Origin: Clostridia bacterium
Lineage (GTDB): Bacteria > Bacillota_A > Clostridia > UMGS1810
Direction of reading: 5' to 3'
Length of the DNA stretch: 12,976 nt
Assembly: GCA_017437345.1 (NCBI GenBank)
Contig: JAFSBJ010000158.1
Coordinates: forward strand, 1-12,976
Part shown: one piece after another, positions 5,083-12,004 of the stretch
How the letters are laid out: every line of letters begins with the position of its first letter
Numbering within the stretch: the first letter of the stretch is position 1
The notes under the pieces: generated by a model
The model's input: the letters and a program-made list of their open reading frames with translations, nothing else
The model's database searches: none
What the model was told of the DNA's origin: nothing
Position numbers and translations under genes: made by a program

Positions 5083-7044
5083 ATGCAGCATCCCGATTTT
5101 CTTCCCATATCCCGTGAGGATATGAAAAAACTTAATATTTCAGAGCTGGACTTTGTCTATGTTTGCGGTGATGCCTATGTTGACCATCCATCCTTTGGCC
5201 ACGCCATAATTTCAAGAGTTCTCTGGGAAAATGGCTATACCGTGGGGATAATTTCTCAGCCCGGCTGGAAGAATACCGACGACATCTCCCGCCTTGGCAG
5301 ACCTCGCCTGGGATTTTTGGTGTCGGCAGGAAATATAGATTCTATGGTAAACCACTATACTGTCAACAAGAAAAAACGCTCCGACGATATGTATTCCCCC
5401 GGAGGAAAAGCAGGTCTCAGACCCGACAGAGCAACCATTGTTTACTGCAATCTTATAAGGCAAGCCTTTAAAGATGTTCCGATAATAATAGGCGGCATTG
5501 AAGCCAGCCTTCGCCGCTTTGCTCACTATGACTATTGGGATAATAAAGTCCGCCGAAGTATTCTTTTTGATTCCAAGGCAGACTGCCTTTCCTATGGCAT
5601 GGGCGAAAGGTCAATTGTGGCTCTTGCCGATTGTCTGTCCAGAGGTGAATCCCTTGGCGACACTCTGATAGATGGTTGCTGCTTTATCAAAAAGGATTTG
5701 ACATTGGTAGGAGAGTATCTTGAAATTCCCTCATATGAAGATGTTTCCGGGGATAAAACAGCCTATGCAAATGCAACCCGTATTCAATATGAAAATCAGG
5801 ATAGCATAAGCGCAAAAATTCTTGTCCAGAAGCATGGCGACAGGTATCTTCTTGCAGCAAAGCCATCAAAACCTCTTGAAACAAAAGAGCTTGATGCTGT
5901 CTATGAGCTTCCCTATAGCTTCCGCCCTCACCCTGTATATGATAAAGACGGTGGCGTTCCTGCTATAGAGGAAATAAAATTTTCCATCACAAATAACCGC
6001 GGCTGCTTTGGGGAATGTAATTTCTGCGCGCTGACCTTCCATCAGGGACGCTCAGTAAGAAGCAGAAGCACGCAGTCCGTTGTCAGAGAAGCTGTCAGAA
6101 TGACAAAAGCCCCCGATTTTAAAGGTTATATTCACGATATCGGAGGCCCCACAGCAAATTTTTCGGCTCCGTCCTGCCTCAAACAGCTGAAAAGCGGCAC
6201 CTGTTCCAAAAGAAAATGTCTTTATCCCGATGTCTGCAAAAATTTAAATGTAGACCACTCAGATTATCTCAAAACCCTCAGGGCTGTAAGAAAGCTTCCC
6301 GGTGTCAAAAAGGTGTTTATCCGTTCGGGCATCCGCTATGATTATCTTCTTGCCGATAGAGACGAAAGCTTTTTAAAGGAGCTTTGCAAACACCATGTCA
6401 GCGGACAACTCCGCATAGCCCCTGAGCATGTGTCGGATGAGGTTCTGTCTTTAATGGGTAAGCCGCCGGCTAAGGTTTATGAGCGCTTCGTTGAAAAATT
6501 CAATCGCGAAAGCAGGCGTATCGGGTTAAATCAATACACAGTTCCCTATTTAATGAGTTCCCATCCGGGAAGCACCTTAAACGATGCAATAGAGCTTTCG
6601 CTCTATATAAAAAAGCACCATATAAGTGCCGAGCAGGTTCAGGATTTTTACCCCACACCATTTACCGTGTCAACCTGTATGTATCACACAGGCATCAATC
6701 CTCTCACTATGGAAAGGGTATATGTTCCCAAAACACCCGAAGAAAAGCAGATGCAAAGAGCTCTTCTTCAGCCAACGGACCCGCGCAATCACCAAATAAT
6801 AATAAAGGCTCTTTCAAAGGCAGGCAGAAATGACCTTATAGGCTTTGATGCATCCTGCCTTATAAGACCAAGAATATTAAAAAAAGAAAAAACAGCTCTT
6901 ATGAGCAAAGAAAATAAAAAAACAACAAAACGGAAGGATGTTATCACAAATGAGCTATCAGATTTTAGACGGAAAAAGAGTATCACAAAAGGTAAAGGAC
7001 GAACTCAGGGTAAAGGTGGAAAGCCTCAAGGAAAAAGGCGTTAA
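5083..7044 (+). CDS. YgiQ/UPF0313-family radical SAM protein
   Basis: The product is 653 residues, the usual size for the YgiQ family, whose reaction is unknown. An N-terminal UPF0313 domain comes first ([20 protein letters not shown] near residues 25-45). The radical SAM domain carries the CX3CX2C cluster motif with Cys308, Cys312 and Cys315 ([11 protein letters not shown]). A third region typical of the family's C-terminal domain follows ([21 protein letters not shown]). The last 50 or so residues are extremely Lys/Arg/Gly-rich. The start at ATG 5083 is chosen because GGAG (5073-5076) is six bases away and the product begins as YgiQ proteins do. An upstream in-frame ATG at 5071 and a TTG at 5035 would read through the inverted repeat. 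No promoter of its own is visible. The final 95 bases overlap folD in another frame. Confidence 0.92.
6932..6937 (+). promoter_or_regulatory. folD ribosome binding site inside the upstream gene
   Basis: GGAAGG lies 12 bases before ATG 6950. An earlier in-frame ATG at 6938 directly abuts this site with no spacer and has no other Shine-Dalgarno sequence upstream, so 6950 is preferred. The site is coding sequence of the radical SAM gene, so translation of the two genes is likely coupled. Confidence 0.6.
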
Positions 7045-7801
7045 TGCCGGGCTTGCTGTTGTTATAGTGGGAGATGATCCTGCATCAAGAGTTTATGTTA
7101 ACAACAAGAAAAAAGCCTGCGAATATTGCGGAATATATTCCGAAGAATATGCTCTCCCTGCCCAGACTACCCAGGACGAGCTTTTAGCCCTTGTGGATAA
7201 GCTCAACAAAAAAGACGATATCCACGGTATCCTGGTTCAGCTTCCTCTCCCCAAACACATAAACGAAGAAACAATCTTAAATGCCATCGATCCCAAAAAG
7301 GATGTTGATGCATTTCACCCTGTAAATGTTGGAAAAATAATGATAGGTAATTTCGATTTTCTCCCCTGTACTCCTGCCGGCGTAATGGAGCTTTTAGATG
7401 ATGCCGGAATTGAGCTTTCAGGCAAAAACTGTGTTGTAATCGGAAGAAGCAATATAGTTGGCAAACCCCAGGCAATGCTTCTTCTCCATAAAAATGCCAC
7501 AGTAACAATCTGCCATTCCAAAACCAAAAACTTAAAAGAGGTATGCCGCGAGGCAGATGTGCTGGTGGTTGCTGTGGGCAGAGCAAAAATGGTTGACGAA
7601 AGCTATATAAAAGAGGGCGCTGTTGTGGTTGATGTTGGTATGGATCGCGACGAAAATGGTAAGCTATGCGGAGATGTAGACTTTGATTCTGCATGCAAAA
7701 AAGCTTCATGGATAACCCCTGTTCCCGGCGGTGTTGGCCCCATGACAATTGCCACCCTTATGAAAAATGCAGTAACTGCTGCAGAGAAAACTCTTAAATA
7801 A
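6950..7801 (+). CDS. folD: Bifunctional methylenetetrahydrofolate dehydrogenase/cyclohydrolase
   Basis: FolD interconverts 5,10-methylene-, methenyl- and 10-formyl-tetrahydrofolate, using NADP as cofactor. The 283 residues match the family length. The catalytic YxxxK is YVNNK at 49-53. It is followed by [12 protein letters not shown], the substrate-site [14 protein letters not shown], the Rossmann segment GRSNIVGKP, and the C-terminal signature [18 protein letters not shown]. The DVDAFHP segment has Ala where many homologues have Gly. The gene starts inside the radical SAM gene (95-base overlap) and ends in a strong terminator. Its product supplies the formyl donor used by PurN, encoded about 4 kb downstream in a separate transcript. 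Confidence 0.95.
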
Positions 7802-7900: not shown

Positions 7901-7984
7901 GTAGATGATTTTTTATAATTGTAATATAATGAAGATTTTATTTTTTGATTTTATTGAAAAAAGCCAAGAGAAAGGATGTTAAAT

Positions 7985-8479
7985 ATGAAAAAAATCGGCA
8001 TCATAATGGGCTCCGACAGCGACCTGCCCGTTGTAGAAAAAGCAATAAACACTCTGAAAGAATATGGTGTACCCTATGAGGTTCATGTTTTTTCGGCTCA
8101 CAGAACTCCAATCGAAGCTGCAGAGTTTTCCAAAAACGCCAGAGCAAATGGATTTGGCGCAGTTATTGCAGCGGCAGGAATGGCAGCTCACCTTGCAGGG
8201 GCAATTGCCGCAAACACCACACTCCCGGTTATCGGAATTCCTGTTAAATCAGCATGCTTAGACGGTATGGATGCTCTTCTTTCCACAGTGCAGATGCCTT
8301 CAGGCATCCCTGTTGCCACAGTTGCAATAAACGGAGCTGCAAATGCAGCACTTATCGCAATTCAGATTCTTGCTGTCGAAGATAAAGAGCTTGCCGCAAA
8401 GCTTGACGATGCAAGAAAAAAAGCCGCAGAAACAGTGCTTGAAAAAAATAAGGCAGTAGAAGATAAATTCAACAATTAA
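7985..8479 (+). CDS. purE: N5-carboxyaminoimidazole ribonucleotide mutase (PurE, class I type)
   Basis: PurE interconverts N5-CAIR and CAIR (step 6 of purine synthesis in bacteria). The 164-residue product is the normal size. It begins [14 protein letters not shown] and has the conserved SAHRTP segment with the active-site His, the AAHLAG loop, and the signature [25 protein letters not shown]. These resemble the class I (bacterial mutase) form rather than the class II CO2-using form. The partner ATP-grasp enzyme PurK is not in the window. The start at ATG 7985 has AAAGGA (7971-7976) eight bases upstream, whereas the earlier ATG at 7976 overlaps that site. It is the first gene of the operon, and its stop codon abuts the ribosome binding site of the next gene. 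Confidence 0.95.
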
Positions 8480-8492
8480 AGGAGAAAACCAA

Positions 8493-9917
8493 ATGGGTGG
8501 ATTTTTTGGCGCAGCAAGTAAGTTTGATGCTGTGTCCGATGTATTCTTCGGCACAGACTATCATTCACATCTGGGAACTAAAAGGGGAGGCATGGCAGCC
8601 TATGATAAAGAAATAGGCCTCCAGAGAGATATTCACAACATCGAAAACTCTCCCTTTCGTACCAAATTTGATAATATTCTTGAAGAAATGAAGGGAAATT
8701 CGGCAATCGGCTGTATCAGTGATACTGACCCCCAGCCTCTTTTAATCCGTTCACAGCTCGGCACTTTCGCCATATGCGTGGTAGGTATTATAAATAATGC
8801 CGAAAATCTTATAAAAGAGCATCTCTTAAAAAATGGCGACCATTTCGGTGCAATGACAGGCGGTAAGATTAATTCAACAGAGCTTGCAGCAGCACTCATA
8901 AGCCTCAAAGAGAATTTTGCCGATGGCATAAAATTTCTTCATAGCATTATAGACGGTTCGCTTTCTATTCTTATTCTCAAAAACGACGGTTCAATCATTG
9001 CTGCTCGTGATAAGCTTGGCAGAACCCCTATCCACATTGCCAAAAATGAAAATGGCTATTGTGCATCATTTGAATCCTTTGCCTGCCAGAAGGTAGGCTA
9101 TGAGCTGGAAAGAGAGCTTGGCGCCGGAGAGATAGTTGAGTTTACAGCAGATGGCATAACTCAGCTTGCTGCACCGGGCAAGGAAATGAGAGTGTGTGCA
9201 TTTTTGTGGACATATTATGGCTACCCCAATTCAATCTATGAGGGAATAAATGTTGAGGTTATGAGAAACCGCAATGGTGCTATCATGGCAGCTCACGATA
9301 TGGAAACGAAAAATGCCGAGGGAATTGATTTTGTAAGCGGAGTTCCCGACTCAGGCACTCCCCATGCAATAGGCTATGCCAATGAAAGCAAAATCCCCTT
9401 TGCCCGCCCGTTTATAAAATATACCCCCACCTGGGCGCGAAGCTTCACCCCGCCAAAACAATCCGACAGGGCTCACATAGCAAAAATGAAGCAGCTTCCC
9501 GTTCACGACCTGATAGTAGACAAAAAGCTCTTGTTTGTGGATGATTCCATAGTAAGAGGAACTCAGCTTAAGGAAACAGTTGATTTTCTCTATCACAACG
9601 GTGCCAAAGAGGTGCATATGCGGAGCGCATGCCCTCCAGTAATGTATAGCTGCAAATATTTAAACTTCTCAAGAGCCACAAGTGAAATGGAATTAATTGC
9701 CAGAAAGACAATATCAGAGCTTGAAGGCGATGAGGGCTTGAAGCATATTGAGGAATACAGCGATGGCAGTACAGAAAGAGGAAAAAAATTAAGAAAAGCG
9801 ATATGTGAAAAACTTAATTTTGCCTCATTGGATTTTCAGTCAATCGAAGGCACGATAAAGGCCATAGGTATCGAACCTTGTAAGCTTTGCACCTACTGCT
9901 GGAATGGAAAAGAATAA
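8493..9917 (+). CDS. PurF-family amidophosphoribosyltransferase homologue lacking the glutaminase nucleophile
   Basis: The 474-residue product matches PurF in length and architecture: an N-terminal Ntn-type domain (about 1-225) and a C-terminal phosphoribosyltransferase domain. The PRPP loop VDDSIVRGTQ is intact at 349-358, and GVPDSGTPHAIGYA is also kept. Cys235, Cys387 and Cys466/Cys469 line up by eye with the four iron-sulfur ligands of Bacillus subtilis PurF; the tail is CKLCTYCWNG. However, the protein starts MGGFFG instead of MCGI-G, so the nucleophile Cys is absent. By eye, HVRYST is replaced by CISDTD, HNG by VVG and SDTE by NSTE, removing the Arg, oxyanion-hole Asn and Asp of the glutaminase site. 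The start is secure (AAAGGAG, 8-base spacing). It could make phosphoribosylamine from free ammonia, use another amine, or regulate. A canonical purF may lie elsewhere in the genome, so no symbol is given. Confidence 0.88.
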   Translation: MGGFFGAASKFDAVSDVFFGTDYHSHLGTKRGGMAAYDKEIGLQRDIHNIENSPFRTKFDNILEEMKGNSAIGCISDTDPQPLLIRSQLGTFAICVVGIINNAENLIKEHLLKNGDHFGAMTGGKINSTELAAALISLKENFADGIKFLHSIIDGSLSILILKNDGSIIAARDKLGRTPIHIAKNENGYCASFESFACQKVGYELERELGAGEIVEFTADGITQLAAPGKEMRVCAFLWTYYGYPNSIYEGINVEVMRNRNGAIMAAHDMETKNAEGIDFVSGVPDSGTPHAIGYANESKIPFARPFIKYTPTWARSFTPPKQSDRAHIAKMKQLPVHDLIVDKKLLFVDDSIVRGTQLKETVDFLYHNGAKEVHMRSACPPVMYSCKYLNFSRATSEMELIARKTISELEGDEGLKHIEEYSDGSTERGKKLRKAICEKLNFASLDFQSIEGTIKAIGIEPCKLCTYCWNGKE

Positions 9918-11623: not shown

Positions 11624-12004
11624 ATGAGTACCGAATTTGAACGCATTGTTCTTGAAAAACTTTCGAAGCTTGATGTTTTGGAAGAAAAGTTTGATACCTT
11701 AGAAAACCGGTTTGATACTATGGAAAATCGGTTTGATACTATGGAAAATCGGTTTGATAATATGGAAAATCGGTTTGATAATATGGAAAAAAGGCTTGAC
11801 ACTATGGAAACAGATTTAAAATCTGTCAAGAAAACAGCCTTAAAGGTTGAAACTGAATTAATACCAAAAACACAGCTTATGCTTGATAACTATATGAATA
11901 TTGCCGAAAAGGTTAATATTTCATCCGATTTGCAGGAGGAAGTAAAAACCTTAAGATATGAAGTTGATATAATAAAACAAATATTGAGTGTTAATAATCA
12001 ATAG
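11624..12004 (+). CDS. Coiled-coil heptad-repeat protein inside the purine operon
   Basis: This is a 126-residue protein of unknown function. After a short leader (MSTEFERIVLEKLSKLDVL) come six near-identical seven-residue units at 20-61: EEKFDTL, then ENRFDTM twice, ENRFDNM twice, and EKRLDTM. A degenerate ETDLKSV follows. Hydrophobic residues recur every 3 and 4 positions (F/L and M), as expected for a coiled coil. A second helical, charged region ends in LQEEVKTLRYEVDIIKQIL. There is no membrane segment and no Cys. The start is supported by GGAAGG (11611-11616). No terminator or promoter separates it from purN or purD, so it should be cotranscribed. It may be a scaffold or a lineage-specific accessory protein. 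It is not a purine enzyme. Confidence 0.85.
   Translation: MSTEFERIVLEKLSKLDVLEEKFDTLENRFDTMENRFDTMENRFDNMENRFDNMEKRLDTMETDLKSVKKTALKVETELIPKTQLMLDNYMNIAEKVNISSDLQEEVKTLRYEVDIIKQILSVNNQ
11681..11806 (+). repeat. 21-bp tandem repeat, six units
   Basis: Six consecutive 21-base units of the type GAAAATCGGTTTGATAMTATG (M is A or C) start at 11681, 11702, 11723, 11744, 11765 and 11786. The outer units are more diverged, and the middle four differ at only one or two bases. Because 21 is a multiple of three, gain or loss of a unit would keep the reading frame. Confidence 0.9.

What the first reader, a model, noticed from the sequence alone, without database searches (positions are those of the whole stretch)
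8493..9917. PurF homologue with an inactivated glutaminase site sits in the purine operon
Seen: the protein starts MGGFFG rather than Met-Cys-Gly-Ile, and there is no alternative start that gives an N-terminal Cys. By-eye alignment shows that the other known glutaminase residues (Arg of HVRYST, Asn of HNG, Asp of SDTE) are also replaced. The PRPP loop VDDSIVRGTQ and the four candidate iron-sulfur Cys remain. Known: canonical PurF takes NH3 from glutamine through Cys1 and channels it to PRPP. Inferred: this enzyme may make phosphoribosylamine directly from ammonia, which would suit an ammonia-rich gut or rumen. It could also partner with a separate glutaminase, or be a regulator beside a canonical PurF.
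Basis: partly seen in the sequence, partly recalled or inferred. Interest (0 to 1): 0.75.

Follow-up and report, generated by a model that had tools for sequence, protein, structure and literature searches.

The report
Glutaminase-dead PurF replaces normal PurF
Many gut bacteria carry a relative of the first enzyme of purine synthesis that has lost its glutamine-splitting site but kept the rest, and in some of them it is the only such enzyme found, so it probably builds the first purine precursor from free ammonia.

Summary
The 474-aa ORF at 8493-9917 is a PurF homologue with no N-terminal Cys and no start that would give one. In 344 aligned relatives Cys1, Arg26, Asn101 and Asp127 are replaced and Arg73-Tyr74 deleted; the PRPP loop and four Fe-S Cys are intact. 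It belongs to a separate, widespread clade ("DegF") usually annotated amidophosphoribosyltransferase, although it scores 162 bits against a curated cut-off of 350. In 293 genomes from the class of a close relative, 84 have DegF. In 23 of those no ordinary PurF was found, yet 22 of the 23 carry purD, against 1 of 37 genomes with no PurF of either kind. In the window's clade DegF holds PurF's place in the pur operon. Where ordinary PurF survives it often lies beside nitrogen-assimilation or other glutamine-using genes. Best reading: DegF is a working phosphoribosylamine synthase without a glutaminase, most likely using free NH3, a PurF counterpart of the AsnA/AsnB pair. PRA synthesis in vivo is well supported by genomics; the ammonia step is inferred. 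The dead domain stays strongly conserved with new invariant polar residues, so a new ligand or partner there is not excluded.

The parts
8493..9917 (+). DegF: PurF homologue with a degenerate Ntn glutaminase domain (residues 1-230) and an intact PRPP-dependent synthase domain (231-474)
8493..9182 (+). Former glutaminase domain: Gly at the Cys1 position, Leu at Arg26, 8-residue gap removing Arg73-Tyr74, Val at Asn101, Ser at Asp127; family-specific invariant D22, Y23, H24, H48, N52, R56, N127, R177
9540..9566 (+). PRPP loop DDSIVRGTQ (residues 350-358)
8480..8484 (+). Shine-Dalgarno-like aggag before the DegF start
   Evidence: sequence read
7976..8479 (+). purE, first purine gene of the operon
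   Evidence: TIGR01162 197.5 bits
9982..11004 (+). purM
   Evidence: TIGR00878 424 bits
10998..11579 (+). purN
   Evidence: TIGR00639 182 bits
12034..12976 (+). purD, cut by the window end
   Evidence: TIGR00877 424 bits on the part present
6956..7801 (+). folD, upstream neighbour, 174 bases before purE
   Evidence: FolD model NF008058 392 bits (cut-off 355)

Best explanation
DegF is a phosphoribosylamine (PRA) synthase: the synthase half of PurF joined to a former glutaminase domain that can no longer bind or split glutamine. It binds PRPP with the ordinary PurF loop and flexible-loop residues and most likely aminates it with free NH3 from the cell's ammonium pool, which would suit an ammonia-rich gut or rumen. 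It is an old paralogue, often a stand-alone gene. In the window's clade it sits in purE-(purC)-DegF-purM-purN-AICAR formyltransferase-purD-purL in place of canonical PurF, which was lost or kept elsewhere, often beside nitrogen-assimilation or other glutamine-dependent synthase genes. Shown by sequence: loss of the glutamine site, retention of the PRPP site, operon place, sole-PurF genomes. Inferred: catalysis, use of NH3, the direction of the gene move, the division of labour by nitrogen supply.
Against: No assay. The one complete PurL scanned from a DegF-only operon (L254, G107) keeps its glutaminase domain, and 23 of the 32 DegF-only genomes have GlmS-sized frames (600-672 aa) with a matching amidotransferase domain (not scanned further), so these cells did not give up glutamine as an amide donor in general. 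The dead domain is conserved nearly as well as the synthase (mean top-residue frequency 0.70 against 0.74) with new invariant polar residues, more than an unused relic would need. Of 68 canonical PurF genes 13 are in pur operons and 17 have no labelled neighbour, so the nitrogen-cluster split is not universal. Thr374 of the PRPP loop is Gln in 344 of 344. Many of the genomes are MAGs; genomes in the counts are related to each other.
Confidence: 0.66

Rival explanations
1. DegF is a PRA synthase fed by a separate glutaminase: an unlinked amidotransferase subunit, or canonical PurF as a heteromer in the genomes where the two genes sit side by side.
For: DegF and canonical PurF are adjacent in G118, G192, G179 and in L016. 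The conserved remnant domain could be a docking surface.
Against: In 23 genomes no canonical PurF was found to partner with. The labels used in 81 operon loci show only purine genes around DegF apart from a few single neighbours; no extra glutaminase was recognised. Unlabelled and unlinked genes were not screened.
Confidence: 0.15
2. The former glutaminase pocket has become a new site, for another nitrogen donor or an allosteric ligand, so DegF is not simply ammonia-driven.
For: D22, Y23, H24, H48, N52, R56, N127 and R177 are invariant (rounded 1.0 in 62 nonredundant sequences) where canonical PurF mostly has other residues or a gap; the domain is conserved almost as well as the synthase.
Against: Positions of the old glutamine pocket became Gly, Leu, Val/Ile and Ser/Pro/Ala, which looks filled rather than rebuilt for a polar ligand. 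No ligand is known; interface or folding could explain the conservation.
Confidence: 0.13
3. DegF is a PRPP-sensing regulator or pseudoenzyme beside a real PurF.
For: 61 of 84 DegF genomes also have canonical PurF, and DegF often stands alone away from pur genes. B. subtilis PurR is a precedent for a PRPP-binding regulator (recalled).
Against: 23 genomes have only DegF and 22 of them have purD. The nine synthase residues checked are kept in 344 of 344. No DNA-binding domain seen: Pfam finds only GATase_7, and the fold match is PurF from residue 2 to 474.
Confidence: 0.05
4. Misassembly, frameshift or pseudogene.
For: The window comes from an unnamed record and no whole genome is held for it.
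Against: Full-length ORFs with the same substitutions occur in 344 distinct sequences, including proteins named from Christensenella massiliensis and C. minuta.
Confidence: 0.01

Closest known systems
PurF / glutamine PRPP amidotransferase (TIGR01134; B. subtilis 1ao0/1gph, E. coli 1ecf)
   Same: Two-domain fold end to end, PRPP loop, flexible loop residues, four Fe-S Cys (B. subtilis type), pur operon place
   Different: Cys1, Arg26, Arg73-Tyr74, Asn101 and Asp127 lost across the aligned family; 162 bits against a cut-off of 350; about 30% identity to B. subtilis PurF; separate clade
Cys1 mutants of E. coli PurF (Mei and Zalkin 1989, as cited in PMC3261824)
   Same: No nucleophile; predicted to use ammonia only
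   Different: Laboratory mutants of an otherwise intact site, against a natural family in which the glutamine site is dismantled
AsnA/AsnB, and ammonia-type carbamoyl-phosphate synthetases (recalled)
   Same: Logic: ammonia- and glutamine-dependent enzymes for one reaction, used under different nitrogen supply
   Different: AsnA and AsnB are unrelated folds; DegF and PurF are paralogues
Mlab_0150 of Methanocorpusculum labreanum (PMC3261824, passage read)
   Same: PurF paralogue without the active-site Cys
   Different: A relatively recent single duplication with Ser in place of Cys beside a normal purF; DegF is an old, widespread clade that can be the only PurF found

Membership tests
PurF equivalog TIGR01134 (glutamine-dependent amidophosphoribosyltransferase) | Score over the curated cut-off (350 bits) | tested here: not met
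   161.7 bits
PurF equivalog TIGR01134 (glutamine-dependent amidophosphoribosyltransferase) | N-terminal catalytic Cys | tested here: not met
   Gly; no upstream start or Cys; Gly in 343 of 344 relatives
PurF equivalog TIGR01134 (glutamine-dependent amidophosphoribosyltransferase) | Glutamine-binding Arg73, Asn101, Asp127 (roles recalled) | tested here: not met
   deleted or replaced
PurF equivalog TIGR01134 (glutamine-dependent amidophosphoribosyltransferase) | PRPP loop and flexible-loop residues | tested here: met
   D366, D367, R371, T373, K326, Y329, R332, K349 kept in 344 of 344; Thr374 is Gln
PurF equivalog TIGR01134 (glutamine-dependent amidophosphoribosyltransferase) | Two-domain PurF fold | tested here: met
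PurF equivalog TIGR01134 (glutamine-dependent amidophosphoribosyltransferase) | Four Fe-S cluster Cys (B. subtilis type; ligand numbers recalled) | tested here: met
   C235, C387, C466 in 344 of 344, C469 in 343 of 344; aligned with B. subtilis PurF
PurF equivalog TIGR01134 (glutamine-dependent amidophosphoribosyltransferase) | PRA formation from PRPP | not testable with these tools
   needs an assay; genomic evidence only
PurR-type PRPP-binding regulator (recalled definition) | DNA-binding domain fused to a type I PRT fold | tested here: not met
   N-terminal part is an Ntn fold, GATase_7 is the only Pfam match

The most novel reading that the evidence does not exclude
Clostridia have a nitrogen-switched first step of purine synthesis: an ammonia-driven PurF without glutaminase (DegF) for ammonium-rich growth and, where kept, a glutamine-driven PurF placed with GS/GOGAT/AmtB genes for nitrogen limitation. 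In parts of the group DegF, and CarB without CarA, have fully displaced the glutamine-dependent forms.
Probability: 0.4. Interest if true: 0.82.

Novelty: new variant of a known kind. Interest (0 to 1): 0.7.

Why it matters
The first committed step of purine synthesis is taught as glutamine-dependent. A widespread family in gut and rumen Clostridia seems to have dropped the glutaminase while staying in the pathway, yet is mostly annotated as ordinary amidophosphoribosyltransferase. If it uses ammonia, metabolic models and nitrogen budgets of these bacteria change, glutamine-analogue inhibitors of PurF would not hit it, and the family offers a natural test of what the glutaminase domain of a channelling enzyme does once its chemistry is gone.

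Tried and rejected
Alternative start giving Met-Cys: rejected. Regulator-only role: rejected for DegF-only genomes. Loss of canonical PurF as an effect of missing sequence: unlikely for the window's clade (11 of 24), weaker for more distant DegF (12 of 60, about 3 expected from a 5% miss rate). Extra operon glutaminase: none recognised among the labels used, other ORFs not screened. General loss of glutamine amidotransferases: not supported. Literature: six searches, of which I saw listings only, apart from passages of PMC3261824; no paper on this family was seen in those listings. Rfam on the window gave no match at the gathering score (sub-threshold matches only). Neighbours of 22 DegF loci chosen as mostly outside the operon share little apart from CarB in 5 of 22. 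Distribution: 12 of 199 genomes drawn from the phylum of G001 have DegF; other phyla were not searched. For six canonical loci without labelled neighbours (L171, L173, L178, L180, L213, L224) no nitrogen genes were evident from the sequence starts; these were not scanned with families. The size of the family is not known: the 8000 proteins scored were a capped list and may include ordinary PurF.

Rows dropped: one search kept 344 DegF and 181 canonical sequences after length filters, start-motif filters and removal of identical rows, so relatives with unusual starts (such as truncated L049 and L073) are not in the residue counts. The context labels used 109 DegF and 68 canonical genes; the tree used 120 rows. 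G254 (DegF split over two contigs) is counted as DegF-only. The tool counts 232 genomes over the PurF cut-off; one search uses 233, every genome whose best PurF match was not a DegF-type score. Genome lists for one search were copied by hand from the answers, and their totals (255, 84, 254, 208, 231) agree with those answers.

Full report

The site. On an alignment of 344 DegF, 181 canonical clostridial PurF and E. coli PurF (E. coli numbering), DegF has Gly at Cys1 (343 of 344), Leu at Arg26 (344), a deletion over Arg73-Tyr74 (344), Val or Ile at Asn101 (332 of 344) and mainly Ser, Pro or Ala at Asp127. In canonical PurF these are invariant, Asp127 in 180 of 181; the canonical rows were picked by a Cys start motif, so Cys1 there is no test. 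The synthase side is kept: Tyr258, Lys326, Tyr329, Arg332, Lys349, Asp366, Asp367, Arg371 and Thr373 in 344 of 344. One change there is universal, Thr374 to Gln. The roles given to these residues are recalled from the PurF literature. The four Cys aligned with the B. subtilis Fe-S ligands are kept in 343 or 344 of 344. The former glutaminase domain is not decaying: its mean top-residue frequency is 0.70, against 0.74 for the synthase, in 62 nonredundant sequences, and it has its own invariant D22, Y23, H24, H48, N52, R56, N127 and R177.

Who has it. Named homologues are nearly always annotated amidophosphoribosyltransferase (one listed as phosphoribosyltransferase family protein). The true family size is unknown, since the 8000 proteins scored are a capped list that may include ordinary PurF. 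Among 293 genomes drawn from the class of G001 (95% completeness asked for, values not shown by the tool), 84 have DegF; 61 of these also have canonical PurF and 23 do not. purD is present in 61 of 61 with both, 22 of 23 with DegF only, 170 of 172 with canonical only and 1 of 37 with neither, that one the weakest match listed. So purD goes with having any PurF-type protein, and DegF counts as one. In the genomes of 42 of the 80 related loci, all with DegF by selection, 32 have no canonical PurF. A 5% miss rate does not explain this for the window's clade (11 of 24, P about 7e-9); for more distant DegF the excess is smaller (12 of 60, P 4e-5). G231, nearly a single contig of 1.67 Mb, has the operon purE-purC-DegF-purM-purN-purB-AICAR formyltransferase-purD-purL and no canonical PurF. 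Genomes are related, so these P values overstate independence. In the phylum of G001, 12 of 199 genomes drawn have DegF.

Where it sits. In 81 loci (window plus 80 relatives, many cut by contig ends) purM is present in 78, purE in 74, purN in 72, the stand-alone AICAR formyltransferase in 63, purD in 59 and purL in 55; 3 of the 80 (L005, L015, L024) show no purine neighbour (labels by BLAST to proteins checked). In a tree of 120 rows DegF and canonical PurF separate with full support (the branch between them is long, so the root is unsure). All 32 operon-borne DegF in the tree fall in one 37-row clade (support 99) that also holds 5 rows without operon neighbours, and stand-alone DegF branch outside it; so DegF probably moved into the operon once or few times. 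In Christensenella (apparently G101 and G160, from the identical protein P0121 and the contig length of P0122) canonical PurF keeps the operon place and DegF stands alone. In G118, G192, G179 and L016 the two genes are adjacent.

The canonical partner. Of 68 canonical PurF genes in fetched loci, 13 are in pur operons, 15 have at least two nitrogen or glutamine-enzyme genes (GS, GltB1-3, AmtB, AsnB, PyrG) within 8 kb, and 40 have other contexts (17 with no labelled neighbour, 23 with purC, purB, carA or pyrG). Family scans of two such clusters show glutamine synthetases, split glutamate synthase, an ammonium transporter fused to PII, AsnB-like protein, CTP synthase, an ANTAR regulator, CarA and glutamate dehydrogenase around canonical PurF.

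A parallel. Near DegF a CarB is found in 5 of 22 loci looked at (confirmed by TIGR01369). In G193, nearly one contig, this CarB has no CarA beside it and lies about 0.1 kb upstream of DegF, while the only CarA found sits with a second CarB and canonical PurF. CarB without CarA occurs in 9 of 20 DegF-only genomes with CarB, 0 of 61 with both PurFs, 14 of 145 with canonical only and 2 of 5 with neither. This fits lineages that run these reactions on ammonia, but kinship is not controlled, and other glutamine-dependent enzymes persist: a complete PurL from a DegF-only operon keeps its glutaminase domain (L254) and GlmS-sized amidotransferase frames are seen in 23 of 32 DegF-only genomes.

Mechanism. 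Shown: the glutamine site is gone and the PRPP site kept, DegF holds PurF's operon place, and it is the only PurF-type protein found in genomes with purD. From the literature: E. coli PurF with Cys1 replaced still uses ammonia (PMC3261824 passages). Inferred: DegF makes PRA from PRPP and free NH3; loss of part of the glutamine loop may open the way for ammonia; canonical PurF, where kept, serves nitrogen-poor growth. A partner glutaminase or a new ligand in the old domain remains possible.

Novelty. Six literature searches listed no paper that I recognised as about this family; the library lacks most subscription journals and I read passages of one paper only. The nearest case seen is a Cys-less PurF duplicate in one archaeon (PMC3261824). 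I call DegF a new variant of a known kind: it works like the synthase half of PurF but fails the defining glutaminase features.

Noticed in passing
L246 (G193) and loci of G161, G278, G083, G214: A CarB lies near DegF, directly upstream in G193 and G161; 9 of 20 DegF-only genomes with CarB have no detectable CarA, suggesting ammonia-type carbamoyl-phosphate synthesis.
   Followed up: partly
L175, L176, L179, L206, L208, L220, L228, L231: Canonical PurF inside or beside a nitrogen-assimilation cluster with some of GS, split GOGAT, AmtB-PII fusion, AsnB, CTP synthase and ANTAR regulator.
   Followed up: partly
L181, L182, L183, L016: DegF and canonical PurF genes side by side, possible heteromer or transition state.
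   Followed up: no
L002:7334-7414: ZMP/ZTP riboswitch (64 bits) upstream of DegF's operon; none at gathering score in the window.
   Followed up: partly
window 11624-12004: 126-aa coiled-coil ORF with repeated segments between purN and purD; Pfam matches are weak coiled-coil models below their cut-offs.
   Followed up: no
window DegF residues 309-318 and 358: Rebuilt stretch KYTPTWARSF in the flexible-loop region and a universal Thr-to-Gln change after the PRPP loop, both family-specific.
   Followed up: no
L181:4927-6108 and the DegF operons of the window's clade: These operons use the stand-alone AICAR formyltransferase (NF005492, 680 bits on the L181 protein) rather than bifunctional PurH.
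   Followed up: no
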